Positions 19,378-40,611 of a stretch of DNA of 64,000 nucleotides are shown in pieces. A program made the translations under genes and the position numbers. How positions within the stretch are numbered: the first letter of the stretch is position 1; the number at the start of each line of letters is the position of its first letter. The DNA lies in contig NZ_JPOJ01000001.1 of NCBI RefSeq assembly GCF_000733855.1, forward strand, positions 3,613,001-3,677,000, written 5' to 3'. The DNA is from Methylomicrobium agile. Lineage in GTDB: Bacteria > Pseudomonadota > Gammaproteobacteria > Methylococcales > Methylomonadaceae. Below the pieces are notes generated by a model. It saw only the letters and a list, made by a program, of their open reading frames with translations, searched no databases and had not been told where the DNA came from.

Positions 19378-21282
19378 TCAATTCCACAGGCCGCCCCGCC
19401 CCATGCATAAGCGCAGGAAAATGCGTGCGGCCGCGATTCCGTTCACGACGAACGAGAAGGCGATCAGCGCCGCAAACCAGGGGTGCTGGCTGCTGGCGTG
19501 ATAGAGCAGCAGGTCTTCGCCAATGAAGGCCGGGGTAATCGGAAAACCGACGAGACCCAGGAAACTGATGAACAGCAACAGCGACAGCCTGGGTTTGGTC
19601 TCCGCCATTGCCCGGTAGGCGAACGGCGTTTCCTTGAAATTTTCCGCTTTCAACAGCAGGTGCAATGCTGCAATGCCGAGCAGCCAGGCCGGGATGATGC
19701 CGGTCAGGAATACGACCGCATCGTCCCAGGCCGAGTTGACGATGAACCAGACCGCGATGCAGGCGAAGAAATAACTGAGCGCAATGTCGTTCCAGGTTCT
19801 GAAAGGGCTGTGCTTCTGGCTGAAGCCGCCCAATGTCGCAAGCACCATCGATACCAGGGCCGGTACCGCCAGGTATTTGTGATGCATCAATTCCGCGTTG
19901 GCCACGAATATGAACAGGCCGAAGATGACCAGCGCGGTTGCGCCTTTGATCCAGGGGCTCACCGCGTTCACCGCCGCGCCGATTTTTTTCAGCGGATCCC
20001 AGAGCAAAGACCGCATCAACCATTCGAGATTGCATTCCTGCAACGAAAAGACATACAAGGTATTGCGCAGCACTTCCGGCAGGCTGTCGCGGACCGATAC
20101 GGGCAATCTGTCGCGCAATGAATCAGTTTTGATTGAGAATTGGGTATCCGCGGAGCCTTCGACCCGCAAGAGATGCGCGACGATCGACGGCGAAACCAGC
20201 AGTTGATAACAGCGCAAGAACGCATTGCCGAGAAAATGCACCAGCACCAGCGTTTCCAGTCCCAAAGCCAGTTCCATGAACATGAAGCCGACCTGGGTGA
20301 TCGAGGCGTAGGCGATCTGGCCCTTGATGTTCGATTGGGTCTTTTCGGACAGGCTCGCGATACACACGGTCAGCAGGCCGATCAGAAACACCACGGCGCG
20401 GCTGAGAAAATGGTAGCTCCAGATCGGCATCGTGCGCAGCAGCAGGAAGACGCCGAGGTGCACCGACAAGGCGCCGTAAAAAATCGCGCTCGACGGCGTC
20501 GGTCCTTCCATCGCGCGCGGCAGCCAGAAGCAGAACGGGAATTGCGCCGATTTTCCGGAAGCGGCCATTACGATCAATAGCGACAGCAGGAGCAGGGCAG
20601 GGTAGCCGGCCGGCGGCATCGCCGCGCTTTCGAACAGGCTGGCGATCTGGCCGAAATGGTCGCTTTCATGGAACAGCATGTGCGTCATCCAGGCGCCGAG
20701 CAACAGGCCGATGTCGCAAAAACGGTAAACCGTGTAGGCGCGCAGCGCATTGCGGACCGGTTGCGGGCGGTGGCGGTAGAACGCGATCAGCAGGAAGGAC
20801 GAGACGCCCACGATTTCCCATCCCGCGAACAGCATGTCGATCGAACCGGACAGAATGACCATGATCAGGCCGAACACGAACGCGAAAATGGTCAGGAAAA
20901 AACGTTTATAGCCGGCTTCCCGGTGCAGGTAATATTGGCAATAGCGAATGATGATCGAAAAAATGATCCAGATGCAGAACAGGTAAGCCGCCCCAACCTT
21001 GTCGAGATAAAACAGGACCGGAAACCGGTAATCGTCCTTCGAATACAGTGTGAAGGCTTCATATTCGTAGCGGGGAAAACCTGCCAGCGCCCAAACGGTC
21101 AGCAGGGCGGCGATGCTGATGCCCAGCGCCGCCCCGAACAGGGAGCTGACCGTGGAGATTCTTTTCTCGCCGGCGCTCCAGTAACTGAATTCGGAGAATT
21201 TTTTCGTATCCTTGGGCGTCAGGAAGATCGCGATGAAACCCAGCAGGGGCATTAATTGACAGGCCAGAAGCAAACTGTTCAT
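19378..21282 (-). CDS. dabB: DabB-type proton channel subunit (NuoL-like), DAB locus 1
   Basis: A 634-residue polytopic protein of the NuoL/MrpA family (PF00361). Key proton-path residues are kept: the TM5 glutamate E156 in GWEIVGVSSFLL and the TM7 lysine K244 in SGKSAQFPFCFWLPRAMEGPTP. After this the usual His-Ala-Ala of complex I is replaced by SSAIFYGALSVHLG, as in DabB proteins. In DAB systems DabB pairs with DabA to couple ion flow to CO2 hydration, giving cytoplasmic bicarbonate (family knowledge). The ATG at 21282 overlaps the dabA stop (ATGA). No other complex I gene is nearby, which rules out a respiratory NADH dehydrogenase. Confidence 0.9.
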   Translation of the reverse strand: MNSLLLACQLMPLLGFIAIFLTPKDTKKFSEFSYWSAGEKRISTVSSLFGAALGISIAALLTVWALAGFPRYEYEAFTLYSKDDYRFPVLFYLDKVGAAYLFCIWIIFSIIIRYCQYYLHREAGYKRFFLTIFAFVFGLIMVILSGSIDMLFAGWEIVGVSSFLLIAFYRHRPQPVRNALRAYTVYRFCDIGLLLGAWMTHMLFHESDHFGQIASLFESAAMPPAGYPALLLLSLLIVMAASGKSAQFPFCFWLPRAMEGPTPSSAIFYGALSVHLGVFLLLRTMPIWSYHFLSRAVVFLIGLLTVCIASLSEKTQSNIKGQIAYASITQVGFMFMELALGLETLVLVHFLGNAFLRCYQLLVSPSIVAHLLRVEGSADTQFSIKTDSLRDRLPVSVRDSLPEVLRNTLYVFSLQECNLEWLMRSLLWDPLKKIGAAVNAVSPWIKGATALVIFGLFIFVANAELMHHKYLAVPALVSMVLATLGGFSQKHSPFRTWNDIALSYFFACIAVWFIVNSAWDDAVVFLTGIIPAWLLGIAALHLLLKAENFKETPFAYRAMAETKPRLSLLLFISFLGLVGFPITPAFIGEDLLLYHASSQHPWFAALIAFSFVVNGIAAARIFLRLCMGRGGLWN

Positions 21283-23903
21283 GACGGGCTCCGCATTGTC
21301 TGCAACAGATGGACTGGGACGGTTTGGATCTTGCCGGCAAAAGCGGCTTCCGAACAGTCCGCTTCGGGCGTCGGAGGCATGCCGGCCAGATCGACGGATT
21401 GCCATTTTGGGTTAGAGTAAAAATAAACGGCGCGTCCGGACGGCTCGAAGCAGGCCAGCCTGATCCAGTCGTGGTCGAACCATTCCCGAGCCTCGCCGAT
21501 TTTCGCTAAGGATTTATCGATAATCTCTCGGGATTGCTCGATCACGATCAGCAGGCGCGCCGGTTCGTGCACTTCGATCATCTGATTCGGCAGTCCGGTG
21601 CGCAGATCGCCTTCGACGCCGTTGGCGACGCCGAGCAGTCCGATTACGTTATGAGGCAGTTTGCTGCCCGCGCCGTACACCGAATTATCGATCCGCGAGA
21701 ACAGGTATTCCAGATTGATGCCGCCGCAGACCGGCACGATGGCGCTCAGGATTCTGGCCAGGATGGCGCCTTGCGGATCGCTTTCCGGATCGTAGGAATG
21801 CAGGAAGGCGCGCCGGTCCATGTAGAGGTTGCGGGTCAGCGCCCGTTTTCCGACGATGCAATACAGGTTGTTCGAATGATTGTATTCGGGCCGGGGTTCG
21901 AAGATGGAGTCGGCGCGTCCTTTGACGTGGGCGTGCGCGGCTTCCGGGTCGCGATTCTGCGGTCCCAGTTCGAACCAGCGGCAGCGTTCGAGCGCATTCA
22001 GTTCAAGCGCGCGCCGCATCGTTTCCTTGAAGGTTTCCAGTTCCGGCGACGGCTGCGCTTCGAGCAGATGCTCGTCGAAATAGGCGATTTCGTCCCGGCT
22101 GGTATTGTGCATCGCCGCAATAAAGCGGGTCGCCTGCGGGATATCGATGCCGCGCTCCCGGAGCAGCGCGCGTACCGGCTCGAGGTTGGCCATCCGGGCG
22201 AAGGCGCGCGCATTCGGCGCGCCGGGCTTGCCGGAGCAGGCGCCGCAGTCGTAGGCGGCGAAATGCGGATTGTTCGCGCTGCTGGAGCCGTGAGCCACGA
22301 CGACGATCCAGGGTGCGAAATTGCGGGTCAGGCCGATATTGCGCAGCAGCCCCTCAATGCGGTCCGCCATTTCGGTAAAGGAAAATCCGAGCATGCGTCC
22401 GTCCTCGGTGGGCAGGTCGCTTTCACGCAGAAGATGCAGGTGCGTGTGCGCTTCGACTTCGCTCAACTTATTGATATAAGGTAATTTCCCACCCGGACGG
22501 AACACATTCCACATCAAACGGATCGCGTAGCCGATCCCGAGCGTCTGGGTGTAGATCCAGCCTCTGAACAGGGATTGCGGTTTGATATGGAGATCTTTCA
22601 ACTTTTTTCCTTTCTTGTTTTTCCCCGGTTTATGGGTCAGGCTGGATTCGCGGACGATGTGTTTCGGATGGATAACCGCCGGGCACTGGGCGACGGGAAA
22701 CGTGTCGTCCAGCCCTTGAAACAGAATGTCGATGCCGAAAAAGCCGGCCGCGCCGAAGGTTTCGACAGCGGGGTTCAACTCTTCGAGATGACGCCGCAGG
22801 GAGCCTTCGCGGTCGTCCAGGCAGAACAGGGCCTGAACTTGCGGAGTGCGGGGCTCGTTGCGGTTCCGGTCGATATCGGCGGACGCCGCGATTGCCTTGA
22901 GCAGTTCGGCATGCAGCGTCCATTCCATCGCTTCGTGCCAGACCTTCAACCGAAGCGGCACTTTCGGCTTATATCCGGGTTCCGTAAGCAACGGTGCTGT
23001 TTGGGAATCGGGTACGGCGGCGACCGTGCTGAACTGACGGCCTTTTTTCAGATTGAGAAAGGCCAACTCGCAGGCGAGCTCGCACGCGATCGTTTCTTTC
23101 AACGATAGGGTCCGCCGCGCCAGCAGCATCTGCGGATTCTGTTCCACGAGGCGCACCATGCCGGACCAGCCCGGATGCGCCAGCAGCATTTCGAGCAGAT
23201 ATTGTTCGTAGAGCCGTTCGTCGCCGACGATTTTTTCGAGGCAGGCCAGAATGACCCGGTCCGGCGTTTCGAGCAGCAGCGCGCGCACCTCCGGTTCATG
23301 GAACGGGTATAGCGGCAGCAGACTGTTATGCACCAGCCGCCAGAGACAGTCCCAAAATCGCTCGCCGTTCTGCGGCAGGCTCCAGCGGCTGATGCCCTGG
23401 TCCAAAAAATTGGCGAGCAGGCGGAATAAAACCGGATGCACCCGCGCGTCCAAGTCTATTTCAAGGCGGTTCAGCCAGGAGCGGCGGATGCCGTGGTTGG
23501 CCATCGACACGGGCGGATAGTGGCTGCGGTTGTCCTCGATGAACAAGGAGCCGCGGAATTTTTCCGCGTCCTCGATATCGGCTGCCGCTTGTCCGATAGC
23601 CCATGAAATCGCCGCGTCGGTAATGCGTCCCTGCCGATAGCGTTTCTGGTAATCGGCCAGCGGCAAATAGCTGCGTGCGCCGAAAATCCCGGCCGCGAGC
23701 GCCACGCCTTCATGAAAGGCAAGGTGCTGAACCGAGTGAAGTGTATTGTGGTGAACGAAGTCTTTGATCGGCCCCTGGGTAGGAAGCCAGTGCGAGATAT
23801 GCTCGATGGACGCATCCGGATCGAATTTCGGCGCATTCAACGGTTCGGCAGGACTCGGATTATCCGTAACGGGTCTATATGATGCTGTATTTGGGGGCGT
23901 CAT
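21279..23903 (-). CDS. dabA: DabA inorganic carbon transporter subunit (DUF2309/UPF0753), locus 1
   Basis: This 874-residue soluble or peripheral protein belongs to the DabA family, which has a beta-carbonic-anhydrase-like zinc site. The expected ligands are visible: C361 and D363 in LFCLDDREGSLRRHL, H538 in VVAHGSSSANNP and C553 in YDCGACSG. The N-terminal IKDFVHHNTLHSVQHLAFHE and the C-terminal LYCIVGKRALTRNLYMDRRA and DLRTGLPNQMIEVHEPARLL are further family blocks. It is the first gene of the dabA-dabB pair and divergent from the second, larger locus. The start codon is the first ATG of the conserved frame; its ribosome-binding site is weak. Confidence 0.93.
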   Translation of the reverse strand: MTPPNTASYRPVTDNPSPAEPLNAPKFDPDASIEHISHWLPTQGPIKDFVHHNTLHSVQHLAFHEGVALAAGIFGARSYLPLADYQKRYRQGRITDAAISWAIGQAAADIEDAEKFRGSLFIEDNRSHYPPVSMANHGIRRSWLNRLEIDLDARVHPVLFRLLANFLDQGISRWSLPQNGERFWDCLWRLVHNSLLPLYPFHEPEVRALLLETPDRVILACLEKIVGDERLYEQYLLEMLLAHPGWSGMVRLVEQNPQMLLARRTLSLKETIACELACELAFLNLKKGRQFSTVAAVPDSQTAPLLTEPGYKPKVPLRLKVWHEAMEWTLHAELLKAIAASADIDRNRNEPRTPQVQALFCLDDREGSLRRHLEELNPAVETFGAAGFFGIDILFQGLDDTFPVAQCPAVIHPKHIVRESSLTHKPGKNKKGKKLKDLHIKPQSLFRGWIYTQTLGIGYAIRLMWNVFRPGGKLPYINKLSEVEAHTHLHLLRESDLPTEDGRMLGFSFTEMADRIEGLLRNIGLTRNFAPWIVVVAHGSSSANNPHFAAYDCGACSGKPGAPNARAFARMANLEPVRALLRERGIDIPQATRFIAAMHNTSRDEIAYFDEHLLEAQPSPELETFKETMRRALELNALERCRWFELGPQNRDPEAAHAHVKGRADSIFEPRPEYNHSNNLYCIVGKRALTRNLYMDRRAFLHSYDPESDPQGAILARILSAIVPVCGGINLEYLFSRIDNSVYGAGSKLPHNVIGLLGVANGVEGDLRTGLPNQMIEVHEPARLLIVIEQSREIIDKSLAKIGEAREWFDHDWIRLACFEPSGRAVYFYSNPKWQSVDLAGMPPTPEADCSEAAFAGKIQTVPVHLLQTMRSPS

Positions 23904-24467
23904 GAGAGATTAAAACTTGGAAATAAAAGATCGTGCAATCCGTAACAAGATTCTATATCAGGCGTTTACTTGGCTGGCGGAACAGCTTTTTCAACGCGTC
24001 CGCCTGAATCGAAACGGGCGATTCCGTTTCGTGCCGGGCATGCGGCCGCACGCCTCTCTTCAAGCGCCCACTCTTGTTACAAGGAACGTTTTTTATAACT
24101 GCTGCATATTTCATGCCGTAACTCAAGCATTTGTTTTTGCTTGATAATAAATTGAGGTGGACATCCAAAGAGGGTCAAAAAAACCATCTTTAGGTGGATT
24201 TGAACTGATTTGACCCGGTTTATCGGGTAAAATGCGACCTTTTCATTTCGATTACCCGAAGTTTCAAAGGGATGCGACGAATTTCGGAAGGCTTGCTTGT
24301 TGCACGCCGTTTGCTGCAAGATCGAGTATAATGGCCGGCAATTTTTAATTTAGTATCGAATCGATATTTAAGCGGGCGCCGTTTCCGGATTTGCAGCCGA
24401 TGGTTCCGCCGGTTTTGTTTGCCGATATGACTCGGAACTTGCATTGCTTAGCATATAGAATCAGCAC
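23904..24467. promoter_or_regulatory. Divergent promoter region of the two DAB loci
   Basis: The 564-bp spacer separates two oppositely directed DAB operons and must contain both promoters. An exact inverted repeat, TCGGGTAA (24223-24230) and TTACCCGA (24252-24259), lies in its centre with 21 bases between arms, a size compatible with a dimeric or tetrameric regulator site. No regulator gene is adjacent. Small frames on either strand are not convincing. The function is inferred from position only. Confidence 0.4.
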
Positions 24468-25931
24468 ATGGGAATACTCAGTACTTTACTCTGGACGCCG
24501 GCGCTGGGGGCTTTTTTGCTCGCGGTGGCGCCGGGCGGCAATGCGTTTTTCATTCGGCTGATCGCGCAGACGTTCTCTCTGTTGACTCTGGTTTTCGCCT
24601 GCCGGTTGCTGGGGACTTTCGATCCGACTCAGGCACAACTCCAGTTCAGGGAGTTTTTCGTCGTGAATCCCGATGTCGGCAGCGCGTATTCCCTGGGAGT
24701 CGACGGTCTTTCGATGCCGATGGTATTGATGGCCGCGCTGCTGACTTTTTGCGCGCTGCTCGCTTCCCATGCGATCACCAACGGCGTCAAGGGCTATTAT
24801 TTCTGCATGTTGCTGCTCGAGTTCGGCATGCTCGGCGTTTTTCTCTCTCAGGATTGGGCATTGTTCTACGTTTTCTGGGAAGTCACCCTGATTCCGCTGT
24901 TCTTTCTGATCGGCCGCTGGGGCGGCAAGCGCCGCCATGCGGCCAGCCTGAATTTCGTGCTGTACACGATGGGCGGGTCGATTTTCATGCTGATCAGTCT
25001 GCTGGCAATCAGCCAGTACGATCTCGACTACGGCGGCTCGCTGATGGCTTCACTGAGCCAGTCCACGTATTCGATGTCCAAAACCGAGCAGATTCTGGTC
25101 CTGCTCGGCCTGATCATCGGCTTCGGCGTCAAAATGCCGATCTTCCCGCTGCACGGCTGGCTGCCCCTGGCGCATGTCGAAGCGCCGAGTCCGGTCAGTA
25201 TCCTGCTGTCCGGCATTTTATTGAAGATGGGCGCCTACGGCCTGCTCAGGTCGATCGCCATGCTGCCCCAGGCGGCGCAGTTTTTTCAGTCCGCGCTGAT
25301 GATTCTGGGGCTGATCGCAATGATCTACGGCGGTTTGCTGGCCTGGCGGCAGACCGATCTGAAGGCGATGGTCGCTTATTCCTCCATCAGCCACATGGGC
25401 ATCGTCCTGTTGGGCATCGCGACACTGAACGAGACCGGCATGACCGGCGCGATCCTGCAAATGACCGCCCACGGTTTCATCGCGGCGGCGCTATTTTTGC
25501 TGGTCGGCCTGCTGTATGAAAGAACCCATACCCGTAATGTCCGGCATTACAGTTCCCTGATTCAGGTGACGCCCCGTTTCGCGGTGTTCACGACCCTGGC
25601 CCTGTTTGCGGCGATGGGGCTGCCGGGGACGGTCGGCTTCATCGCCGAATTTCACGCGCTGGCCGGCGGCTTTCAACAGTGGGGCGGCTGGATGGTCCTG
25701 TTCAGCCTCGCCGTCTTATTGAGCGCTTCATACGCGATAAGAACCGTCGGCTTGTTGTTTACCGGGCCGGTCAAGGCCGAGATGCAGCAGGTAGGGGATC
25801 TGACGCTGTCCGAGATGTTCACGGCCGGGATGCTGGTTGGCGGCATCATCCTATTGGGCCTCATGCCGCAGCCGTTGATCGCTTTATCCGAGGCGACCGT
25901 TTCCCACCTTCATTCACTGGTGTCGCCCTAG
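24468..25931 (+). CDS. NuoM-like proton-conducting subunit, first gene of DAB locus 2
   Basis: A 487-residue membrane protein with about 14 transmembrane segments. It keeps the antiporter-module residues: E138 in VFWEVTLIPLFFLIG, K222 in GFGVKMPIFPLHGWL, and K253 in LLKMGAYGLLR, with the full EAPSPVSILLSGILLK block typical of NuoM/NdhD. It is therefore the most complex-I-like of the modules here. No NuoA-K or NADH-binding genes are nearby; the next gene, 8 bp on, is a long dabA. It probably contributes ion translocation to the expanded DAB complex. Alternative: part of a stand-alone Mrp-like antiporter. Confidence 0.88.
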   Translation: MGILSTLLWTPALGAFLLAVAPGGNAFFIRLIAQTFSLLTLVFACRLLGTFDPTQAQLQFREFFVVNPDVGSAYSLGVDGLSMPMVLMAALLTFCALLASHAITNGVKGYYFCMLLLEFGMLGVFLSQDWALFYVFWEVTLIPLFFLIGRWGGKRRHAASLNFVLYTMGGSIFMLISLLAISQYDLDYGGSLMASLSQSTYSMSKTEQILVLLGLIIGFGVKMPIFPLHGWLPLAHVEAPSPVSILLSGILLKMGAYGLLRSIAMLPQAAQFFQSALMILGLIAMIYGGLLAWRQTDLKAMVAYSSISHMGIVLLGIATLNETGMTGAILQMTAHGFIAAALFLLVGLLYERTHTRNVRHYSSLIQVTPRFAVFTTLALFAAMGLPGTVGFIAEFHALAGGFQQWGGWMVLFSLAVLLSASYAIRTVGLLFTGPVKAEMQQVGDLTLSEMFTAGMLVGGIILLGLMPQPLIALSEATVSHLHSLVSP

Positions 25932-25939
25932 GGTTTTTC

Positions 25940-28900
25940 ATGCAGGAATTATCGATATCAGCAGAAACCCGCGCGGGCTCCGGCAATGCGGTCCTGCGCG
26001 ACGAAATCGCCCGCATCCTGCTTGAACTGGATCATGTATTGCCGGGGCAGGCGCCGATTCTCGACTTCGTGCATCACAATACCCTGCACGGCTATCAGCA
26101 TCTGCCTTTCGAAGAAGCACTGGCGGAAACGGAGCGGGTGACCGGAATCGGCGGCTATCAGCCCGAGAGCGAATTCCGCGCCTGTTACCGGCAAGGCCGG
26201 ATCGGCGACGTCGATCTGGCCGCCGGACTCCGGCATTACGTCGACTTCAACCTCGACGATACCGTCTGTGCGGTACGGGGCAAAACCATCCGCCGCGAGG
26301 ATGTTTACCGGGTTGCGCTGCTGTTCGATCTGGAGCCGATTACCGAAAGCCGGTTGAACTGGAATATTACCGAGCTGGAAGCATTGGACAAGGTTCAACC
26401 GGACGTGCCGGAAACGGTGAAAACCGCACTGCTGGGCAAACGGGCGACTTCCCTCGACGAAAAGAACCGGGTCCGTTCGCTCTGGAGCGGCATATTGGAC
26501 AAGCTGGGGCTGGACCAAACCGTTCCGCATCCCGAAAATCTGTTCGACTTGTCTCCGGAACAGGCCGAGGAATGGATCAATCGGGCGGTGCAGGCGCAGC
26601 CGGACGGCAGCCTGACTCTGCACGAAATGATGCGGGCGGAAGCCGGTGCGGCATTGACCCGATTCACGACCGAAATCGGCGACAGACTGACGCTGGGCGG
26701 ATTCATTCGGGCGATCACCGGCGTCGACGCCTTCGAAACAGTCAAACCGGAACTGATCCGGATCTGCGCCTCCGCGCTGGACGAAGGCATGGCGCCCTGG
26801 CAATTGCCGGAGCGCGATACCCTGGGGTTGTATGCCGGCTGGCGCAGCATGTTCCGGTGCGATGTGAATCCGGTTTTTCTCGAACTGCCCGACTGGTCCG
26901 AGCTGGTGGACGGGCTTCCCGAAGATCCGGTGGAGGCGGTCATCGGGCAGTTGACCTATCTTGGCCTGCCGCAGGCCAAATGGGCCGGCTACTTGCGGCG
27001 ATTGGCGCTGGAGCTGCCGGGCTGGTCGGGCATGATCAACTGGCGGCGGCATCATCCCGGTTACCACACGGATCGTCCTGCGGCCGTCGACCTTGCCGAT
27101 TTTCTGGCGATCCGGCTGATCTACGATCGTCTCTGGCTCGGCCAGATTTGCCGGGACGTATGGAAAATCGAAGCGAAGCTCCCGGCGATCGAAAATTATT
27201 TTCGCAAGAATCTTTCCGAATTGATGGTGCGGGAAGCCTTATATAAAGGCGAATTACCGGAGTTCCTGGCGCAAAAAACCAAGACCTTGATTCTGCGCGC
27301 CCGCTCCGAGCGCTATTTCAAACCCGAGTGGCAGGCGCTTTCCGATCAGATCCGCACCTGGCAATTGAGCCCGCTGTGCCGCCATGAAAACCGCCATTGC
27401 CACTGGAGCAGCGGCTGGCGCTTGTTCCGGCTGTGCCAGCATTTGGGCATCGACGCCGAGGCGGTCGGCGCGATGTCGCGGAACGATCTGGAGATTCTGC
27501 TGAAGCAGCTGGATGCGTTTAAGCCGGCCCGGCGCGGCAAGGTCTGGCTGGCTGCCTACGAGCGGAATTACCGCGACAAGCTGCTGCAAGCGATAACCGT
27601 CAATCGGGGGCGCGGGCTTTCGGCCGGCCACGGGCGGCAACCAGAAGCGCAACTGGTTTTTTGCATGGACGAGCGCGAGGAAAGTTTCCGGCGGCATCTC
27701 GAAGAGCTGAACCCCGCTGTCGAAACCTTCGGGGCGGCCGGCTTTTTCGGGATTCCGATGTATTACAAAGGGCTCGATGACGCGCATACGACGCCTCTGT
27801 GCCCGGTCGCGGTCACGCCCGCCCATCTGGTCGAGGAAGTGGTAAGGCCCGGCGCCGAGCAAATCCTGGGCAGGCATCGGCGGGGGCATAAGCTGTTCGG
27901 AGGGCTCGCTTATCTGATTCACCACCGTTTGCGCAGCGACCCGTTATCGGCGTATTTCACGACCGTTCTGGCGGCGCCGTTCATCCTGCTCGGATTGCTC
28001 GGCGACACGTTGCTGCCCGGTTTCAGATTCCGGTTCAAGCAGAGATTGTCCCGTGCCCTCGATCCCGAAATGCCCACCGCGCTGCGTTTTACCGGCACCG
28101 CAGATTCTGCAACGGCGCAGCCGAAGATCGGATTCGGCGATGCCGAGCAGGCCGACCGGATCGAAAACCTGCTCAGGACGCTCGGGCTGACCCAGGGCTT
28201 CGCGCCGCTGGTCTGCATGATCGCGCACGGTTCGACCAGTTTGAACAATCCGCACGAGGCGGCCCACGATTGCGGCGCCTGCGGAGGGCGGCGGGGAGGC
28301 CCGAACGCGCGCGTCTTCGCGGCGATGGCGAACCGTCCGGAAGTGCGGAAGCTTTTGGCTGAACGCGGCATCGCGATTCCGGCGTCATGCCGGTTCGTCG
28401 GCGCGCAGCACGATACCTGCAGCGACGCGATCACTTGGTACGATCTGGACACGCTGCCTCAATCCTGGCATGGACCGTTCGCTGCTCTCCGCCAATCTCT
28501 CCATGAAGCGCAGCGTCTTTCCGCGCATGAGCGCTGTCGCCGCTTTTTGCCTGCGGAAGCATTGCCGACGCCGAAACAGGCCTTTGCCCATGTGCAGCGG
28601 CGCGCTTCGGACTTGAGCCAGGTGCGCCCCGAGTTCGGCCATGCCGGCAACGCGGCGGCGGTGATCGGCCGACGCCAGCTGACGCGCGGGCTGTTTTTGG
28701 ACCGGCGCGTCTTCCTGATTTCCTACGATCCCGCTCAGGACCCCGACGGGCGCGTCGTCGAGAACATTTTGCTGACCGCGGGGCCGGTCGGCGCCGGCAT
28801 CAATCTGGAATATTATTTCTCGACCGTCGATAACGACCGTTTCGGCTGCGGCACCAAGATTCCGCACAACCTGACAGGGCTTTTCGGGGTGATGGAAGGG

Positions 28901-29239
28901 ACCGGCAGCGATTTGCGTACCGGCCTGCCCAGGCAGATGATCGAAATTCACGAGGCGATGCGCCTGCAGGTGATCGTCGAAGCCAAAACGGCCGTGCTCG
29001 AGCGGATTTATCAGCGCCAGGAGGCGCTGCGCGAATTGATCGCCAACGGCTGGCTGCATTTGATTGCGATCGATCCGGAAAGCGGAGACGTCTTCCTGTT
29101 CGATCGCGACAGAGGATTCGTGCGCTGGCAAGGAGACGGAACGCTGCCGGCCGCCGTCGAAAATTCGCAGGCCGCTTACCGCGGCCGAACCGGACCGGTT
29201 GCGCCGGTGCTGCTCCGGCCCGTAACCACCGGAGCCTGA
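25940..29239 (+). CDS. dabA: Long DabA-type protein (DUF2309), DAB locus 2
   Basis: At 1,099 residues this is about 225 longer than the locus 1 DabA. Zinc-site motifs are intact: C575 and D577 in LVFCMDEREESFRRHL, H763 in CMIAHGSTSLNNP and C778 in HDCGACGG. The block RRHLEELNPAVETFGAAGFF is nearly identical to the locus 1 protein, whereas the rest differs widely, so the two are paralogues of different subfamilies. The extra length lies mainly in the N-terminal half, before the first zinc motif (about residues 100-560). The ATG at 25940 is used; the open frame continues upstream inside the NuoM-like gene but is a shadow. The following gene begins two bases after the stop. Confidence 0.92.
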   Translation: MQELSISAETRAGSGNAVLRDEIARILLELDHVLPGQAPILDFVHHNTLHGYQHLPFEEALAETERVTGIGGYQPESEFRACYRQGRIGDVDLAAGLRHYVDFNLDDTVCAVRGKTIRREDVYRVALLFDLEPITESRLNWNITELEALDKVQPDVPETVKTALLGKRATSLDEKNRVRSLWSGILDKLGLDQTVPHPENLFDLSPEQAEEWINRAVQAQPDGSLTLHEMMRAEAGAALTRFTTEIGDRLTLGGFIRAITGVDAFETVKPELIRICASALDEGMAPWQLPERDTLGLYAGWRSMFRCDVNPVFLELPDWSELVDGLPEDPVEAVIGQLTYLGLPQAKWAGYLRRLALELPGWSGMINWRRHHPGYHTDRPAAVDLADFLAIRLIYDRLWLGQICRDVWKIEAKLPAIENYFRKNLSELMVREALYKGELPEFLAQKTKTLILRARSERYFKPEWQALSDQIRTWQLSPLCRHENRHCHWSSGWRLFRLCQHLGIDAEAVGAMSRNDLEILLKQLDAFKPARRGKVWLAAYERNYRDKLLQAITVNRGRGLSAGHGRQPEAQLVFCMDEREESFRRHLEELNPAVETFGAAGFFGIPMYYKGLDDAHTTPLCPVAVTPAHLVEEVVRPGAEQILGRHRRGHKLFGGLAYLIHHRLRSDPLSAYFTTVLAAPFILLGLLGDTLLPGFRFRFKQRLSRALDPEMPTALRFTGTADSATAQPKIGFGDAEQADRIENLLRTLGLTQGFAPLVCMIAHGSTSLNNPHEAAHDCGACGGRRGGPNARVFAAMANRPEVRKLLAERGIAIPASCRFVGAQHDTCSDAITWYDLDTLPQSWHGPFAALRQSLHEAQRLSAHERCRRFLPAEALPTPKQAFAHVQRRASDLSQVRPEFGHAGNAAAVIGRRQLTRGLFLDRRVFLISYDPAQDPDGRVVENILLTAGPVGAGINLEYYFSTVDNDRFGCGTKIPHNLTGLFGVMEGTGSDLRTGLPRQMIEIHEAMRLQVIVEAKTAVLERIYQRQEALRELIANGWLHLIAIDPESGDVFLFDRDRGFVRWQGDGTLPAAVENSQAAYRGRTGPVAPVLLRPVTTGA

Positions 29240-29241
29240 GC

Positions 29242-30804
29242 ATGGATTCGTTAGTCATTTTGATTCCGTTACTGCCTTTCGGCGCCGCGGCGATCATGGG
29301 GCTCGGCATTCTGTTCGGTTGGCTGGCCGGCGAGGACAAGGAAGGCGTGACCTCCGGCATCGCCCTCTGGGCCGTCACCATGTCCTGCCTGTTGGCGTTG
29401 ACGCTGTGCGCCGCCGACATGCTGGGCATGAACCGCGGTACGTTCAATCTGGGAACCTGGCTGCAAAGCGATACATTGCGGATTTCGTTCAATTTTTCGA
29501 CGCACGGCATCGGCCCCCGGCTCGCTGCGCTGTTCGGGACCCTCCAGGCGATCGTGCTGCGCTTTTCGGTGAATTACCTGCACAAGGAAGCCGGCTTTCA
29601 CCGTTTCTTTTTCGTGCTGACGCTGTTTACCGGAGCGATGCACTGGCTTGTGCTGGCCGGCAACGCGGCCGCTACGTTTATGGGATGGGAAATCGCCGGC
29701 CTCTGCTCCTATCTGTTGATCGCCTACGCGCATGACCGTCCGGCCGCCGCGGCTAACGCGACGCGGGTCTTCGTGACCAGCCGGGTCGGCGATGCGGCTT
29801 TCGTGATCGGGATCGGGCTCAGCTACGCCTTCGCGGAAAGCGTCGATTGGACGAGATTGAATGCGCTGGCCGCGCAGTTGCCGTCGGGGGAGGCGGCCGG
29901 CATCGCGACTTGTTTCGCGGTCGCGGCATTCGTCAAATCCGCGCAGGTGCCGTTTACTCCCTGGCTGCTGCGCGCGCTCGAAGGGCCGACGCCGTCGAGT
30001 GCGGTCTTTTACGGCTCGGTGATGGTGCATGCCGGCATCTTTCTGGTCTGTCTGCTGGAGCCGCTCTTCGAAGCGTCGCCTTTTGCGATGGGGTTGCTGA
30101 TTGTGGCCGGGGGCGTCACCGCGGTGCACGGTTATTTGCTCGGGCTCACCCAGACCGATATCAAGACCTCGCTGGTTACCGCCGTTTCGGTGCAATTGGG
30201 GCTGATGTTTTTCGAATGCGGGCTCGGCTTGTGGCGGTTGGCGGAGTGGCATTTATGCGCGCACGCGGTCGTCCGCGCCTATCAATTGCTGAGCGCGCCG
30301 TCGCTGCTGCACAATATCCACGGCACGCCGGTCAAACCGGTCGGGCCAGTCCTGGCTAAAAAGTATTGGCTTTATACCGCCTCGCTGCAGCGTTTCTGGC
30401 TGGACTCGCTGACCGATTGCCTGTTGGTCAGGCCGATAGGCCGGCTGTCGCACGACCTTCGCTATTTCGACGATTCCATCATCGATCCGCTGCTGGGCTC
30501 GCCGGCGCCGGCGATCAACGCGATTTCTTCGCTGGCTCAGTACGAAGAGCAAAAGATCGGTGCACGCCTGGATAACGATTCCGAGCAGTTTGCGCAAGGC
30601 AGCGGCCTGGCAGGCAAACTGGCCGAATGGACGGCGGCGCTGATTCACGGCCTTGAAAGCCGCTTGATGCTGCGCGGCTACGGCAAAAGCGTGTCGGATT
30701 TCGGCAGGCGTCTGGGGCGTTCCGCCAACCGCTTCGAAGCGTATATTTTAAGGCCCCGTTATCTGGTACTGTTTGTGTTCGTCACCCTGCTGGTCGCATT
30801 CTGA
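29242..30804 (+). CDS. dabB: NuoL-like (DabB-type) proton-conducting subunit, DAB locus 2
   Basis: A 520-residue polytopic membrane protein. The TM5 glutamate E150 is in FMGWEIAGLCSYLLI and the TM7 lysine K232 in AAFVKSAQVPFTPWLLRALE. It shares the SSAVFYGSVMVHAGIF variation with the locus 1 DabB, so this is the true DabB counterpart of the operon. The C-terminal part (about 390-500) is a hydrophilic segment with DPLLGSPAPAINAISSLAQY before a last membrane helix (LVLFVFVTLLVAF). It directly follows dabA (2-bp gap) and precedes two NuoM-like genes. Probable role: ion-driven coupling to DabA. Confidence 0.9.
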   Translation: MDSLVILIPLLPFGAAAIMGLGILFGWLAGEDKEGVTSGIALWAVTMSCLLALTLCAADMLGMNRGTFNLGTWLQSDTLRISFNFSTHGIGPRLAALFGTLQAIVLRFSVNYLHKEAGFHRFFFVLTLFTGAMHWLVLAGNAAATFMGWEIAGLCSYLLIAYAHDRPAAAANATRVFVTSRVGDAAFVIGIGLSYAFAESVDWTRLNALAAQLPSGEAAGIATCFAVAAFVKSAQVPFTPWLLRALEGPTPSSAVFYGSVMVHAGIFLVCLLEPLFEASPFAMGLLIVAGGVTAVHGYLLGLTQTDIKTSLVTAVSVQLGLMFFECGLGLWRLAEWHLCAHAVVRAYQLLSAPSLLHNIHGTPVKPVGPVLAKKYWLYTASLQRFWLDSLTDCLLVRPIGRLSHDLRYFDDSIIDPLLGSPAPAINAISSLAQYEEQKIGARLDNDSEQFAQGSGLAGKLAEWTAALIHGLESRLMLRGYGKSVSDFGRRLGRSANRFEAYILRPRYLVLFVFVTLLVAF

Positions 30805-30811
30805 GGCCCCG

Positions 30812-32404
30812 ATGCATTTTCCCGTTAACCCCTGGGCCGCCGCGGCGGCTTTTCCGGTCCTGACCGCGATGACGCTGGTCCCGCTTGCCGCGATGGCCGC
30901 GGTATTCTGTACGCGCACCTTGCCGGCCGCCTTTCGCTTCGGGTTTGCCGGCGCGTGCCTGAATGTGTTATTGAGCGTTTATCTGTTGCTGGTGTTCGAT
31001 GCCGAGGAATCCGGCCTTCATCTGGTCGAACAGATGCACTTTGCCGGATTGAGCTATGCGGTGGGCGTCGACGGGGTCAATATTCTGTTTATTCCGTTGA
31101 CCGCAGTCATTGCTTTTCTGGTGATGTACTATATCTTTTCGCACTCGCAGAAGCGTTATCACGGCCGTACTTTCGTGGCCTGCGTGCTCGGTTACGAGGC
31201 GATTTTAATCGGGGCTTTCGCGTCTTTGAACGTGATGCAGTTCTGGCTATGGAGCGCGCTGGAGCTGATTCCGGTCATTTACCTGACGCTGCACTGCGGT
31301 ACCGGCCTGCATCGGCGGTGGGCGGTCGACCGCTTCCTGCAATATTGGGGCAGCGCTTTGCTGATGACTCTGGCCGGATTTCTGCTGCTCGGTTTCGGCC
31401 TGATCGATTCTGAGCATCCGTTGACTTTCGACTGGCTGACGATCAAGCGGAACAACGCCTATCTCCACGACGAGGCGCTGATATTTGTGCTGCTGTTTTA
31501 CGGCTTTGCGGTGCGCATGCCGCTGTTTCCGTTTCACGGTTGGCTGCCGATCCTGGCCGAACAGGGCACGGTCGCGAGCTGCGCGATTTTTCTGGCGGGC
31601 CTGAAGCTGGGAATTTTCGCGGTTCTCCGGTTTATTTTGCCGTTGCTGCCCGGCGTGGCCGAAGACTGGTCGGGGCTGGTGCTGACCTTGGCGCTGATCA
31701 GTATTTTTTATGGCGCGGTCATGGCTTTACTGCAGATCAACATCCGGCGCCTTCTGGCTTTTGCGGTCATCAGCCAGACCGGCATTCTGGTGATCGGGTT
31801 GTTCTGTTTCAACGATTTCGGCCTGGAAGGCAGTATCATGCTGTCCATCGCTTACGGCCTGGCGACGGCGGGGATGCTGTTCAGCGTCGGCCTGATCTAT
31901 GAACGGACCGGCACCGCGGTTATGCCGAGGCTGGGCGGTTTGTTCGATTCGAATCTGACCCTGGGCATGCTGTTCCTGATTTCGGCCTTGAGCACGCTGG
32001 TCAAACCCGGCACGCCCGGTTTCGATGCCACGCATCTGATCATCGAGGGCACCGTCGAAGAGCACGGCTGGCTGCTCGCGATCGCGATATTGACCGGCAA
32101 CCTGCTGGCGGCGGCATTTATTCTCTGGGCCTTCCAGCGCATTTTTCTGGCGACTTCCAGGCGTTTCGCGCAGCCTTATTCGAGCCTGCACCATCCGGTG
32201 CTGAAAGAGCGTCTGATCACGCTTGTGATCTGCACTTTGCTGATCGGGACGGGATTTTACATGCGGCCCTGGCTCAGGCTCGTCGACCAGGACGCCGCGC
32301 TGATCACGAAAGGCTACCCGATTCACAGCTCGATGCCGCATGATCACCCGGCGGGAATATCCGGGTCCGATAATGTTCAATTCGAGGAAGAACAGCAGCC
32401 ATGA
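30812..32404 (+). CDS. Divergent NuoM-like subunit with displaced key residues, DAB locus 2
   Basis: A 530-residue membrane protein of the NuoM fold, but altered at the proton path. In TM5 the family sequence FWEVTLIP becomes WSALELIP: the glutamate is at E151, two positions later than in the neighbouring modules. In TM7 the lysine is arginine R235 (AVRMPLFPFHGWLP), and the EAPSPVS block is replaced by EQGTVASCAIFLAG. The TM8-type lysine (GLKLGIF) remains. It may be a structural or gating module rather than a standard proton pump; this is inference. It starts 7 bp after the NuoL-like gene and its end overlaps the next gene by four bases. Confidence 0.87.
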   Translation: MHFPVNPWAAAAAFPVLTAMTLVPLAAMAAVFCTRTLPAAFRFGFAGACLNVLLSVYLLLVFDAEESGLHLVEQMHFAGLSYAVGVDGVNILFIPLTAVIAFLVMYYIFSHSQKRYHGRTFVACVLGYEAILIGAFASLNVMQFWLWSALELIPVIYLTLHCGTGLHRRWAVDRFLQYWGSALLMTLAGFLLLGFGLIDSEHPLTFDWLTIKRNNAYLHDEALIFVLLFYGFAVRMPLFPFHGWLPILAEQGTVASCAIFLAGLKLGIFAVLRFILPLLPGVAEDWSGLVLTLALISIFYGAVMALLQINIRRLLAFAVISQTGILVIGLFCFNDFGLEGSIMLSIAYGLATAGMLFSVGLIYERTGTAVMPRLGGLFDSNLTLGMLFLISALSTLVKPGTPGFDATHLIIEGTVEEHGWLLAIAILTGNLLAAAFILWAFQRIFLATSRRFAQPYSSLHHPVLKERLITLVICTLLIGTGFYMRPWLRLVDQDAALITKGYPIHSSMPHDHPAGISGSDNVQFEEEQQP

Positions 32405-33959
32405 ATATGCCGGAGTTTCCCTTGCTCAGTATTTTGATCTGGCTGCCGATGCTGGGGGCGGCGGCGGTCGGCCTGGTGCGGAACCTCCAGGCCGCCAAAT
32501 GGAGCGCTCTTTCGGTCGCCGGTCTGGAGCTGGCCGTTGCGCTCGCCGCTGCCGGCCGGTTTCAAGCGGAGAGCGGCAACGAATTGCAGTGGGTCGAGCA
32601 TCATGCCTGGATCGAACGGTTGAATATCAATTACTTTCTCGGTGCGGACGGCATATCGATTCTGCTGCTGCCCTTGTCGGCGCTGCTGACCTTGCTGACT
32701 TTGCTGGCGACCTGGAATTCGGTGCAGCGCCTGCCGCGTTTTCACCTGTCGCTGCTGCTCGCGCTCGAAGGCGTGACGATGGGCGTATTCACCGCGATGG
32801 ACATGATCCTGTTCTTTCTGTTCTGGGAGCTGACCCTGGTGCCGATTTTCTTTTTGATCGGCTTGTGGGGCATCGGTCCCGGACGGCGCGAAGCCGCCAT
32901 GAAATACACGCTGGTGATGCTGTTCGGCGGCGTTGCGCTGCTGTTCGCGATCATTCTGCTTGCGTTCAACCATGCCGACACGATCCAGGGCCATATTCCG
33001 GGCGATCTGTCGTTCAGTCTGCCGATGCTGTCGGCCACGCCGTTGTCGGGACGGACGGAAACGGCGGTGTTCATTCTGTTGATGCTCGGTTTCGCGGTGA
33101 AAGCGCCTTTGCCGCCTTTTCATACCTGGCTGCCGACGGTAGCGATGGAAGGATCGACTCAAATGACCGCTCTGTTGACCGGGCTTAAACTGGGCGTTTA
33201 CGGGATCATCCGCTTCGCGATGCCGCTGGCGCCGGCTTCGGCGGTCGAATACAACTGGGCGCTCGGCATCATCGGCGCGGTCACGCTGATCTACGGCGCG
33301 TTGGTCGCTATGCAGCAAAGCAATTTGCGCCGCTTGCTGGCCTATGGCAGCATCAGCCATATCGGGCTGGTCATCGTGGGGCTGTCTTCGCTGAATATAC
33401 AGGGAATCCAGGGCGCGTTGTTCCAACTGGTCAACTTCTCGATCGAAGGAAGCGCCTTGATGCTGATCGCCGGCTTTATTCATCACCGCCTCGGCAGTAA
33501 CGAAAAAGTGCACATGGGCGGGCTCGCCACGGCGGTGCCCGGCTGACCGGCTTTTATTTGCTGTTTATGCTGGCCAGCCTGGGAATACCCGGAACCAGCG
33601 GTTTTCCGGCCGAATTGCTGATGATCGTCAGCGCGTTGACCTCGCATCCGAGCCTGGCCATTGCCGCGCTGGCCGGAACGATTCTCGGCGCCGCTTACAT
33701 GCTGTCGTTCACGCGCCAGGCCTTCTTGGGACCGGCGACAAGCGCCGCGGTCAGGCAATTGCAGGATTTGCGCCCGCGCGAGCTGGGCGTTCTTTGCGTG
33801 CTCGGCATGCTGGTCCTCTCATTCGGCCTGTGGCCGGATACGGTTCTGGAAAATCAACGGGCTGCAGCCGAAGTCTGGCTGAATCATTTGCTCGAACCGC
33901 CGGCGATGGACGGCTCCGGTTTCGATCCGGAGGTACCGGATCCGGAAACCCGCGAATGA
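32401..33959 (+). pseudogene. Third NuoM-like subunit of DAB locus 2, single-base frameshift
   Basis: The first part (32401-33546, 381 residues) is NuoM-like, with E143 in LFWELTLVPIFFLIG and K234 in GFAVKAPLPPFHTWLP. It stops right after GGLATAVPG. The missing C-terminal 134 residues continue at once in another frame (RLTGFYLLFMLASLGIPGTS). Inserting one C in the run at 33538-33540 restores VPRLTGFY and a normal subunit of about 519 residues. So either one base was lost in sequencing, or this is a recent mutation or slippage site. It overlaps the upstream gene by 4 bp, and its restored end overlaps the next gene by ATGA, which argues that the full reading is functional. Confidence 0.85.
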
Positions 33960-34204
33960 CAAATGGAAATTTCGAGATGCATGAGAGCAGGCCGGCCGGA
34001 AAAACCGACGTTATCTGTCATTGCAGCGGGACTACCGGAGAGAAGATCAGGGCGCTGGTCGGTCGGGGGATCGGTGATCTGGAGCATATATCCCGGCTGA
34101 CCGGCGTTTGCGCGGGATGCGGAGCCTGCGAGCGCGCGGTATCGGATTTGCTGGCCGAGTTGGGCGGGCGTCCGGATTCGATATGTCCGCCCATCATCCC
34201 TTGA
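33956..34204 (+). CDS. Small BFD-like [2Fe-2S] protein, last gene of DAB locus 2
   Basis: The 82-residue protein has the bacterioferritin-associated-ferredoxin (BFD) pattern: C21-H-C23 (DVICHCSGTTGEKI), then about 28 residues, then C52-AG-C55 (LTGVCAGCGACE), plus an additional C58. BFD domains bind [2Fe-2S] and serve as electron carriers or redox sensors (family knowledge). The ATG overlaps the upstream stop (ATGA), so it belongs to the operon. No iron-storage gene is near. An electron-transfer or redox-gating role in the DAB complex is attractive but unproven. Its end is followed by a convergent gene on the minus strand. Confidence 0.75.
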   Translation: MTNGNFEMHESRPAGKTDVICHCSGTTGEKIRALVGRGIGDLEHISRLTGVCAGCGACERAVSDLLAELGGRPDSICPPIIP

Positions 34205-35183: not shown

Positions 35184-35375
35184 TAGAGCATTTTCATATC
35201 GCGTATAAGTGCACAATACCGTTAAGTCCAGCCGTCATCTCGGCAGGGATTGCCGAAATCCAGGGTACAGGGAGGTATGAGAGCCAACCCGCCTGGGTTT
35301 CTGGATGCCGGCAATCCCGGCCGGAATGACGTGTTTTCCTTACGAAGGCCTTGTTCCCAAAGCGAAAATGCTCTA
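35184..35375. repeat. 192-bp element with 12-bp terminal inverted repeats, nested palindrome
   Basis: TAGAGCATTTTC at 35184-35195 and its exact complement GAAAATGCTCTA at 35364-35375 bound the element. Inside, 35233-35331 is a second inverted repeat (CGTCATCTCGGCAGGGATTG against CAATCCCGGCCGGAATGACG), a widespread type of bacterial intergenic repeat. The right end contains the TAG stop codon of ftfL (35373-35375). It looks like a MITE-like or composite repeat; no ORF is inside. The rest of the spacer 34862-35183 shows no gene. Confidence 0.7.
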
Positions 35376-37046
35376 AAACAACCCGCTGATCCGTCCGTTT
35401 TCGTCGATGTCGATCTTCTCCGCCGCCGGCACTTTCGGCAGGCCCGGCATGGTCATGATATCGCCGGCGATCGCGACGATGAAGCCCGCGCCGTTGGCCA
35501 ATCTGACTTCTCTGATTTCGACCGTGTGTCCGGACGGGGCGCCCTTGATCGACGCGTCGGTCGAAAACGACATCTGCGTCTTCGCCATGCAGATCGGGAA
35601 ACGGCCGTAGTCGCCGTTCCAGGCCGCCAACTGGGCCTTTACTTTCGCGTTCGCGGTGACTTTGGCCGCGCCGTACAGCTTGGTCGCGATCGTTTCGATT
35701 TTTTCCCACAGGCTCAAATGGTCGTCGTAGACGAAGCGGCAGCCATCCAGGTGGCGGTCGGCCGTCTCGGCGACCGCGTGCGCGAGCCGTTCGGCGCCCT
35801 TGCCGCCTTCGGCCCAGTGTTTCGAGGCGATGCAGACTGCGCCGAGCGTCCGGCATTTGTCCTGCAGTAAGTCGAGTTCGGCCTCGGTGTCGAAGGTGAA
35901 ATGGTTGATGCAGATCACGCAGGGCAGGCCGTAATGTTCGGTGATGTTCCGGTAATGCCGTTCCAGGTTCGCGAAGCCTTGTTCGAGCGCGCCGAGGTTT
36001 TCCCGGTTCAGGTCTTCCTTCGCGACGCCGCCGTGGAATTTCAGTGCCCGGACCGTCGCGACCAGCACCACCGCCGATGGCTTCAGGCCGGCCATCCGGC
36101 ATTTGATGTCGACGAATTTCTCGGCGCCGAGATCGGCGCCGAAGCCGGCTTCGGTGATCACGTAATCGGCCAGCTTCAGCGCGGTCTTGGTCGCGGTGAC
36201 CGTGTTGCAGCCGTGCGCGATGTTCGCAAACGGGCCGCCGTGGATGATCGCGATGTTGTTTTCCAGCGTCTGCACCAGGTTCGGCTTGATCGCGTCTTTC
36301 AGCAGCGCCGCCATCGCGCCGTGCGCATTCAGGTCGCGCGCGTAGACCGGCGTTTTGTTGTCGGTCTTGTAGCCGATCACGATCCGGCCGAGCCGCTCCT
36401 TCAGATCGGTGATGTCGGTCGCGAGGCAGAGGATCGCCATCACTTCCGAGGCGACCACGATGTCGTAGCCGTCTTCGCGCAGATAGCCGTTCGCGGGGCC
36501 GCCCATGCCGAGCACGATATTCCGCAGCGCCCGGTCGTTCATGTCGACGACGCGTTTCCATTGAATCCGGCGCAGGTCGATGCCTAGCGCATTGCCGTGG
36601 TTGATATGGTTGTCGATCAGGGCCGAGAGCAGGTTGTGCGCGACGCCGATCGCATGGAAATCGCCGGTGAAGTGCAGGTTGATGTCTTCCATCGGCACGA
36701 CCTGCGCATGGCCGCCGCCGGCGGCTCCCCCTTTGACGCCGAAGCAGGGGCCGAGCGAGGGCTCGCGCAGGCACATGATCGTCTTTTTGCCGATCCGGTT
36801 CATCGCATCGCCGAGGCCGACGGTGGTGGTGGTTTTGCCTTCGCCGGCCGGCGTCGGGCTGATCGCGGTGACCAGAATCAGTTTGCCGTCCGGCTTGCCG
36901 CCGAGGCTGTTCACATAATCCAGCGACAATTTGGCTTTGTAGTGGCCGTACGGGTCGAGATGTTCGGCGTCGATGCCGAAATGCTCTTTTGCGAGGCCGA
37001 TGATCGGCTTCATCTTCGCCTGTTGGGCGATTTCTATGTCGGACAT
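35373..37046 (-). CDS. ftfL: Formate-tetrahydrofolate ligase
   Basis: This enzyme makes 10-formyl-THF from formate, THF and ATP, and is the entry step from formate into the serine cycle and C1 biosynthesis. The 557-residue protein has the ATP loop [15 protein letters not shown] (from residue 65), the family blocks [40 protein letters not shown] and [20 protein letters not shown], and the THF-site FAVNHF-like motif here read [13 protein letters not shown]. Length is normal. It is in the minus-strand half of the serine-cycle region, downstream of a toxin-antitoxin pair, and its stop codon sits in a repeat. Confidence 0.97.
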
Positions 37047-37156
37047 GAATTTTTTCCTGTTGCAGACCCGGCCAGGGTTGGAATAAATAGCCGGAAAGTC
37101 TAATTTAAGGTTGAAAATTGATTTTTATGGCACCGAGCGTATCCCTGGATAGAGAG

Positions 37157-37549: not shown

Positions 37550-37776
37550 GACTGATATTCGTCGAAGTCCGGTAATGGCGCATCGAAGTCGTCGCCGATC
37601 TTGATGCGCCCGGCCAAAGCGCCCGCTTTACGCAGCATTAACGGTGCATTTTCTCCTTGTTGCGCTACCGCATCGGAAACCGCTATTTCGATCGTTTTGT
37701 CATGAAACAGGGCTTTCAAGGAGTTGATGAAATCTTCATTCAGCTCATTGGCTTGCAGTCTGTATGTGGTATGCAT
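37546..37776 (-). CDS. Antitoxin partner of PIN toxin
   Basis: The 76-residue protein (MHTTYRLQANELNEDFINSL, FHDKTIEIAVSDAVAQQGEN) resembles small antitoxins found beside PIN toxins of this length; the acidic C-terminus (DFDAPLPDFDEYQS) would be the toxin-neutralising part. Gene order antitoxin-toxin with ATGA overlap supports the call. I could not assign a DNA-binding fold with confidence. A short inverted repeat upstream (37811-37837) is a possible operator. Confidence 0.8.
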   Translation of the reverse strand: MHTTYRLQANELNEDFINSLKALFHDKTIEIAVSDAVAQQGENAPLMLRKAGALAGRIKIGDDFDAPLPDFDEYQS

Positions 37777-37810
37777 AATGATTCAATTGAGCATGGTGAA
37801 AATATGATAA

Positions 37811-37837: not shown

Positions 37838-37892
37838 AAATGCGAGGGAAGCGATAAAACTGTCCCAAATTGAGGTGTGCCTAGCTGTATGC

Positions 37893-40587: not shown

Positions 40588-40611
40588 GGATAAATCGAGA
40601 AAGAGCGGTCG

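What the first reader, a model, noticed from the sequence alone, without database searches (positions are those of the whole stretch)
19378..34204. Two divergent DAB inorganic-carbon loci, one expanded to six genes
The sequence shows dabA-dabB on one strand and, back to back, an operon of NuoM-like, long dabA, NuoL-like, NuoM-like, NuoM-like and a [2Fe-2S] protein on the other. Known DAB systems need only DabA plus one DabB (established knowledge). Four ion-conducting modules with one DabA and no other complex I subunit suggests a larger multi-antiporter complex, perhaps with greater energy coupling or ion choice. The two DabA proteins share zinc-site blocks but belong to different subfamilies. 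The serine cycle next door uses bicarbonate, a plausible need.
Basis: partly seen in the sequence, partly recalled or inferred. Interest (0 to 1): 0.8.

Follow-up and report, generated by a model that had tools for sequence, protein, structure and literature searches.

The report
Five-subunit CO2-capture complex in methanotrophs
A methane-eating bacterium carries, besides an ordinary two-gene CO2-trapping machine, a larger five-gene version that wraps one carbonic-anhydrase-like subunit with four proton-channel-like subunits; the same five genes recur in the same order in dozens of bacteria and stay together as a set even when the cluster is broken up, which suggests a distinct and so far unstudied kind of CO2 pump.

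Summary
The window has dabA1-dabB1 on the minus strand and, divergently, M1-dabA2-L-M2-M3 plus a small BFD-type [2Fe-2S] gene. The conserved unit is five genes, not six: the order M1-DabA-L-M2-M3 on one strand recurs in 63/63 loci with all five genes and in 12/12 loci of another proteobacterial class, while the [2Fe-2S] gene is found only here and in the nearest relative. In eight genomes where the cluster is split over 2-4 places, or L and M2 are fused, all five genes are recognisable (M2 frameshifted in one). This is a genetic unit; physical assembly is unproven. L is the DabB; M1, M2 and M3 are extra NuoM-like subunits. L lacks the helices (TM12-15) that help form the exit half-channel in DAB2, and DabA2 lacks the finger glutamate essential there, while M1 and M3 keep every pump residue: proton flow was probably moved from DabB into NuoM modules. 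Both window DabAs belong to one deep clade with invariant active-site differences from DAB2 (Leu658 to His, Ser356 to Glu). NuoM genes near dabA were noted in 2017 (COGNAT). In this assembly M3 carries a frameshift. Verdict: new variant of a known kind, mechanism untested.

The parts
19378..21282 (-). dabB1, DabB/NuoL-like partner of dabA1; 634 aa, with TM12-15-type C-terminal helices
   Evidence: PF00361 138 bits; DabB clade; 6 hydrophobic segments after TM11
21279..23903 (-). dabA1, 874 aa, two-gene DAB; overlaps dabB1 by 4 nt
   Evidence: PF10070 778 bits; Zn/dyad residues C361 D363 R365 H538 C553; E366, H676, Q453 in place of finger Glu
23904..24467 (.). 564-bp divergent intergenic region with a block (about 24175-24235) shared with L003
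   Evidence: no consensus sigma-70 site
24468..25931 (+). M1, NuoM-like, 487 aa, all four pump residues kept
   Evidence: NDH_I_M 487 bits; own clade 100*; residues 63/63
25940..29239 (+). dabA2, long DabA, 1099 aa, beta-carbonic-anhydrase fold with a predicted membrane finger (640-691) lacking the DAB2 glutamate (V676)
   Evidence: PF10070 852 bits; model pLDDT 82; CsoSCA Z 10.7, 320 residues; residues
29242..30804 (+). L, the DabB of this system, 520 aa, NuoL fold TM1-11 with TM12-15 missing and one C-terminal helix
   Evidence: DabB clade 100*; one hydrophobic segment after TM11 in 61/62; model and NuoL superposition
30812..32404 (+). M2, NuoM-like, 530 aa, degenerate pump residues; sister of M3; fused to L in L139/L140
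   Evidence: NDH_I_M 268 bits
32401..33959 (+). M3, NuoM-like, pump residues kept, interrupted by a one-base loss (TGA 33544-33546)
33956..34204 (+). BFD-like [2Fe-2S] protein, 82 aa, start overlaps the M3 stop; lineage-specific
   Evidence: PF04324 E=4e-10; only here and L003 of 63

Best explanation
The plus-strand locus encodes an obligate five-subunit relative of the DAB (dissolved-inorganic-carbon accumulating) complexes. DabA2 is a zinc beta-carbonic-anhydrase-like subunit that hydrates CO2 to bicarbonate on the cytoplasmic side. L is its DabB, reduced to TM1-11, so it cannot by itself form the through-membrane proton path described for DAB2. M1 and M3 are complete NuoM-like proton channels and probably carry the inward proton flow; M2 is a degenerate spacer or relay bound to L. 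Flow through the chain would drive or gate DabA2 through L and the DabA2 finger, giving one-way CO2 trapping. The adjacent dabA1-dabB1 is an ordinary two-subunit DAB of the sister clade. Shown: gene content, co-inheritance, homology, residue patterns, TM loss. Inferred: physical assembly, direction, stoichiometry, protons rather than sodium, and CO2 as substrate.
For: Order M1-DabA2-L-M2-M3, one strand, 63/63 loci and 12/12 loci of another class. Eight genomes with split clusters hold all five genes in 2-4 places, M2 frameshifted in one. Natural L-M2 fusion. Each of DabA2, M1, L, M2, M3 is one clade; pairwise distances correlate 0.85-0.94 (no outside control). Zn ligands and Asp-Arg dyad invariant in all 162 aligned DabAs; DabA2 model matches beta-CAs, Z 10.9. 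M1 and M3 keep Glu/Lys/Lys/Glu; M2 does not. L lacks TM12-15. Finger Glu444, essential in DAB2 (PMC13144422), is not conserved.
Against: No biochemistry or expression data. The window's own M3 is frameshifted, and M2 is broken in G373, so some copies may be decaying or misassembled. A single DabB suffices for DAB2 and, by gene content, for long DabAs elsewhere, so extra subunits are not needed for DAB chemistry as such. L's C-terminal 100 residues are modelled with low confidence, and a profile comparison with the NuoL tail gave no support. The finger alignment is less certain than the active-site alignment.
Confidence: 0.6

Rival explanations
1. DabA2 and L form an ordinary two-subunit DAB; M1, M2 and M3 form a separate Mrp-like antiporter that is only co-transcribed, for example for pH balance.
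For: Two-gene DABs with long DabA are common; M1 and M3 look like complete antiporter modules.
Against: L lacks TM12-15; L and M2 are fused in two genomes; M1 stays with DabA2 while L stays with M2-M3 in several splits, and none of the eight rearranged genomes lacks any of the five; no Mrp B, C, E, F or G genes were seen in the window locus.
Confidence: 0.15
2. The complex works outward: DabA2 catalyses an energy-releasing reaction and the antiporter modules pump ions out, as proposed for this family in the COGNAT paper (PMC5700660).
For: Several complete pump modules, as in complex I; the active-site second shell differs from DAB2.
Against: CO2 hydration near neutral pH releases too little energy to pump several protons (established thermodynamics); zinc site unchanged; DAB2 is driven by the protonmotive force (PMC13144422).
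Confidence: 0.08
3. It is a sodium-linked bicarbonate importer like MpsAB rather than a proton-driven CO2 hydratase.
For: The relatives MpsAB are proposed Na+/HCO3- symporters (PMC13144422 introduction); sequence does not settle the ion.
Against: M1/M3 residues are those of NuoM; carbonic-anhydrase zinc site and dyad invariant.
Confidence: 0.1
4. In this particular genome the five-gene system is a decaying copy and only dabA1-dabB1 works.
For: Frameshift in M3 removes the C-terminal part including the TM12 Glu.
Against: Both M3 pieces together match NuoM nearly end to end and all other genes are intact; one base only, which a sequencing error would also explain.
Confidence: 0.15

Closest known systems
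DAB2 / DIC-accumulating complex of Halothiobacillus neapolitanus (PDB 9rd0; PMC13144422)
   Same: DabA with the same zinc ligands and Asp-Arg dyad, beta-CA fold and membrane finger; a NuoL-like DabB
   Different: Five subunits instead of two; DabA before DabB; His for Leu658 and Glu for Ser356; no conserved finger Glu444; L keeps the TM5 Glu that DAB2 lost but lacks TM12-15
COGNAT clade C (ybcC upstream of nuoL, with COG1008 NuoM nearby; PMC5700660)
   Same: Very likely contains this gene cluster (its figure was not available); same suggestion that more membrane subunits move more ions
   Different: The main text lists the neighbourhood only: no fixed composition, no split or fusion test, no residue or TM analysis, and an opposite direction proposed
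Cyanobacterial NDH-1MS (CupA with NdhF3/NdhD3)
   Same: Works alike in outline: a CO2-hydrating subunit on a NuoL/NuoM-type membrane arm (established knowledge)
   Different: Different CO2-hydrating protein, ferredoxin-driven, and built on a full NDH-1 core that is absent here
Complex I membrane arm (NuoL-M-N)
   Same: L and M subunits are homologues; L superposes on NuoL
   Different: None of the other complex I subunits in the locus; the genome has its own complex I elsewhere

Membership tests
DabA/DabB (DAB, DAC) family | DabA (PF10070) with Cys2His zinc site and Asp-Arg dyad | tested here: met
   C575 D577 R579 H763 C778 in DabA2; invariant in 162 sequences
DabA/DabB (DAB, DAC) family | Adjacent NuoL-like PF00361 subunit of the DabB clade | tested here: met
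   L groups with DabB, 100* and 97*
DabA/DabB (DAB, DAC) family | Beta-carbonic-anhydrase fold | tested here: met
   Model mc8089acd566b vs 8thm_B Z 10.9, rmsd 4.7, 305 residues; 2fgy_A Z 10.7, 320 residues
DabA/DabB (DAB, DAC) family | Energy-linked DIC accumulation | not testable with these tools
   needs uptake or complementation assay
DAB2-type mechanism | Finger glutamate (Glu444) | tested here: not met
   V676 in window DabA2, Q453 in DabA1; D/N/A/L/Y in relatives; E in 31 of 34 long and 30 of 33 short comparison DabAs
DAB2-type mechanism | DabB with TM12-15 forming the periplasmic half-channel with the finger | tested here: not met
   One hydrophobic segment after TM11 in 61/62 L proteins, against 4 in DabB2
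DAB2-type mechanism | Leu658 in place of the carbonic-anhydrase Gln | tested here: not met
   His in all 93 five-gene DabAs and in DabA1-like ones
Complex I (NDH-1) | Redox arm and NuoA/H/J/K/N subunits | tested here: not met
   Only L/M-type genes in the locus; complex I is elsewhere
Mrp Na+/H+ antiporter | MrpA and MrpD with small MrpB, C, E, F, G subunits | tested here: inconclusive
   No such genes seen between 19378 and 34912 and no room in the tight operon, but small ORFs were not scanned one by one
Cyanobacterial NDH-1MS | CupA-type CO2-hydrating subunit on an NDH-1 core | tested here: not met
   The CO2-hydrating subunit here is PF10070 and no NDH-1 core is present in the locus

The most novel reading that the evidence does not exclude
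A third architecture for biological CO2 pumping: a complex-I-like membrane arm (L-M2-M3 plus M1) assembled around a carbonic anhydrase, in which DabB has lost its own exit channel and two intact NuoM modules power vectorial CO2 hydration, perhaps with more than one proton per CO2 and so able to trap CO2 at lower levels than two-subunit DABs.
Probability: 0.4. Interest if true: 0.8.

Novelty: new variant of a known kind. Interest (0 to 1): 0.6.

Why it matters
DABs are candidates for engineering CO2 uptake into crops and microbes, and how they couple proton flow to CO2 hydration was only just proposed from one two-subunit structure. This variant lacks two parts of that proposed coupling (the finger glutamate and the DabB exit half-channel) yet is strictly conserved with three extra NuoM-type subunits across methanotrophs, ammonia and nitrite oxidisers and sulfur symbionts. 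It gives a natural test of whether coupling can be moved to other subunits and whether stoichiometry scales with the number of modules.

Tried and rejected
Six-gene unit: rejected, the [2Fe-2S] gene is lineage-specific. 'Long DabA means expanded complex': rejected. Programmed frameshift in M3: no slippery heptamer seen at 33530-33550 and the nearest relative is intact there; not tested further. L tail homologous to the NuoL lateral helix: profile comparison gave probability 0.4%, so not claimed; only a low-confidence stretch of the model superposes. Structure prediction of the L-M2 fusion: dropped because M2 rows appeared to align to the L half. PDB fold matches to 9rd0 did not appear in the fold searches; that library ends in April 2026, so this says nothing; the sequence search does find 9rd0. 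Consensus promoter and Rfam scans of the region found nothing useful. Literature search found no description of the fixed five-gene unit beyond the COGNAT neighbourhood note; the original DAB paper (Desmarais 2019) was not held, so its supplementary trees could not be checked.

Full report
OBSERVATION. The genes are as described at 19378-34204: dabB1-dabA1 on the minus strand and M1-dabA2-L-M2-M3-BFD on the plus strand, with a 564-bp divergent region between. Junctions are -4 to +8 nt. M3 is interrupted by a one-base loss (TGA at 33544-33546); the two pieces match NuoM positions 1-368 and 375-481. Nearly all relatives have intact M3, and the nearest reads through at that site. The genome has its own complex I with L, M and N about 470 kb away; together with the locus genes these account for every PF00361 match.

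CONSERVATION. A scan of one genome for each of 84,980 species with DabA2 gave 80 loci: Methylococcales, Nitrosomonas, Nitrosospira, Nitrotoga, tubeworm symbionts and others. With loci from a class-wide survey (83 of 369 genomes have DabA; neighbourhoods), 63 loci hold all five genes, and in all 63 the order is M1-DabA2-L-M2-M3 on one strand. A phylum-wide search with L found 36 of 398 genomes, most in another class; 12 of 12 of the loci fetched (11 from outside the class, L231 from within it) have the same order. Among the 63, only L003 has a BFD gene like the window's. So the conserved unit is five genes.

SPLITS AND FUSIONS. Some genomes break the cluster: M1-DabA2 apart from L-M2-M3 (G370, G371), DabA2, M1 and L-M2-M3 on separate contigs (G372, G373), M1-DabA2 | L | M2-M3 (G330), DabA2 | M1-L-M2-M3 (G074), and DabA2-[L-M2 fusion] | M1 | M3 (G068, G199). 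All eight carry all five genes, though M2 of G373 is frameshifted. The L-M2 fusion (1048 aa, two PF00361 stretches) implies that these two touch. This is the strongest evidence that the five act together: operon hitch-hiking does not explain retention after dispersal. It does not prove one physical complex.

PHYLOGENY. DabA tree (quick ML, SH-aLRT only): five-gene DabAs form one clade (100*), sister to a clade of two-gene DabAs (99*) that holds window DabA1; together they stand apart (100*) from the DAB2-type DabAs. PF00361 tree: L lies in the DabB clade next to DabB1-like proteins; M1, M2 and M3 are each one clade inside the NuoM side, with M2 and M3 sisters (97*). So the system is DabA-DabB plus three recruited NuoM-like subunits.

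ACTIVE SITE. The five zinc and dyad residues are invariant in all 162 aligned DabAs. Two neighbours split cleanly: Ser356/Leu658 in 62 sequences, Glu/His in 100, the latter being the clade of both window DabAs. In DAB2, Leu658 replaces the transition-state Gln of carbonic anhydrases and Ser356 holds a proton-relay water (PMC13144422). A polar His and an acid there suggest altered catalysis or proton relay; this is inference. The DabA2 model (mean pLDDT 82) has the carbonic-anhydrase fold and a helical hairpin at 640-691 matching the finger, but position 676 (Glu444) is Val, and mostly D, N, A, L or Y in relatives.

CHANNEL SUBUNITS. Over 63 loci M1 keeps TM5 Glu, TM7 Lys, TM8 Lys and TM12 Glu in all; M3 keeps them wherever readable; M2 has lost both acids and has Arg for the TM7 Lys in all 63. 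L keeps TM5 Glu and TM7 Lys, with His at the TM8 position as in DabB1, but has one hydrophobic segment after TM11 in 61 of 62, against 4 in DabB2, 6 in DabB1 and 5 in NuoL. The L model superposes on NuoL over TM1-11, then skips about 150 NuoL residues. In DAB2 the periplasmic half-channel is built from DabB TM12-13 and the finger with Glu444 (PMC13144422); the five-gene system lacks both conserved elements. The simplest reading is that proton flow goes through M1 and M3.

FUNCTION. Many carriers are autotrophs or C1 users by genus, but this genome has no RuBisCO or PF00311 PEP carboxylase. It has three PF00484 carbonic anhydrase matches and two pyruvate-carboxylase/oxaloacetate-decarboxylase-type genes, one at 61915-63696 of the window. 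Bicarbonate supply for anaplerosis is plausible, not shown. Serine-cycle genes (formate-THF ligase, glyA, glycerate kinase, mdh, hpr, an aminotransferase) lie at 35373-45473.

PRIOR ART. COGNAT (PMC5700660) noted in 2017 that ybcC upstream of nuoL is often near COG1008 and suggested that more membrane subunits move more ions. The DAB2 structure paper deals with two- and three-subunit complexes. No held paper that came up describes the fixed five-gene unit.

VERDICT. A real, widespread, co-inherited five-gene DAB variant with a reduced DabB and recruited NuoM modules. The composition is firm; the complex and its mechanism are predictions.

Noticed in passing
window 33541-33560: One-base loss in M3 creates a premature TGA; nearly all relatives have intact M3. 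Could be a sequencing error or a real loss.
   Followed up: partly
window 24175-24235: Block in the divergent dabA1/M1 intergenic region shared with L003 (AAAAAAACC ... GATTTGAACTGA ... TATCGGGTAAAATGC), possibly a shared control element.
   Followed up: partly
L114 877-11189: DabA of the DAB2 side of the tree (basal) followed by NuoN/M-, NuoL- and NuoM-like genes: perhaps a second, independent multi-antiporter DAB.
   Followed up: partly
L179 2750-8759: DabA-DabB followed by a distant NuoM-like gene (26% to M3) in the two-gene sister clade; possible intermediate.
   Followed up: no
L003, L045 and L049: The two-gene and five-gene DAB loci are also neighbours here: divergent in L003, same strand with the pair upstream (L049) or downstream (L045).
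   Followed up: partly
L205 7321-8877: M2 broken by several frameshifts or stops while L and M3 stay open.
   Followed up: no
window 35373-45473 and 61915-63696: Serine-cycle genes beside the locus and a pyruvate carboxylase/oxaloacetate decarboxylase-type subunit further on; no PF00311 PEP carboxylase in the genome.
   Followed up: partly
L055, L038 and L208: One Methylovulum MAG carries a full five-gene cluster, a second M1-DabA2 pair and a second L-M2-M3: two complete sets, or mixed binning.
   Followed up: no
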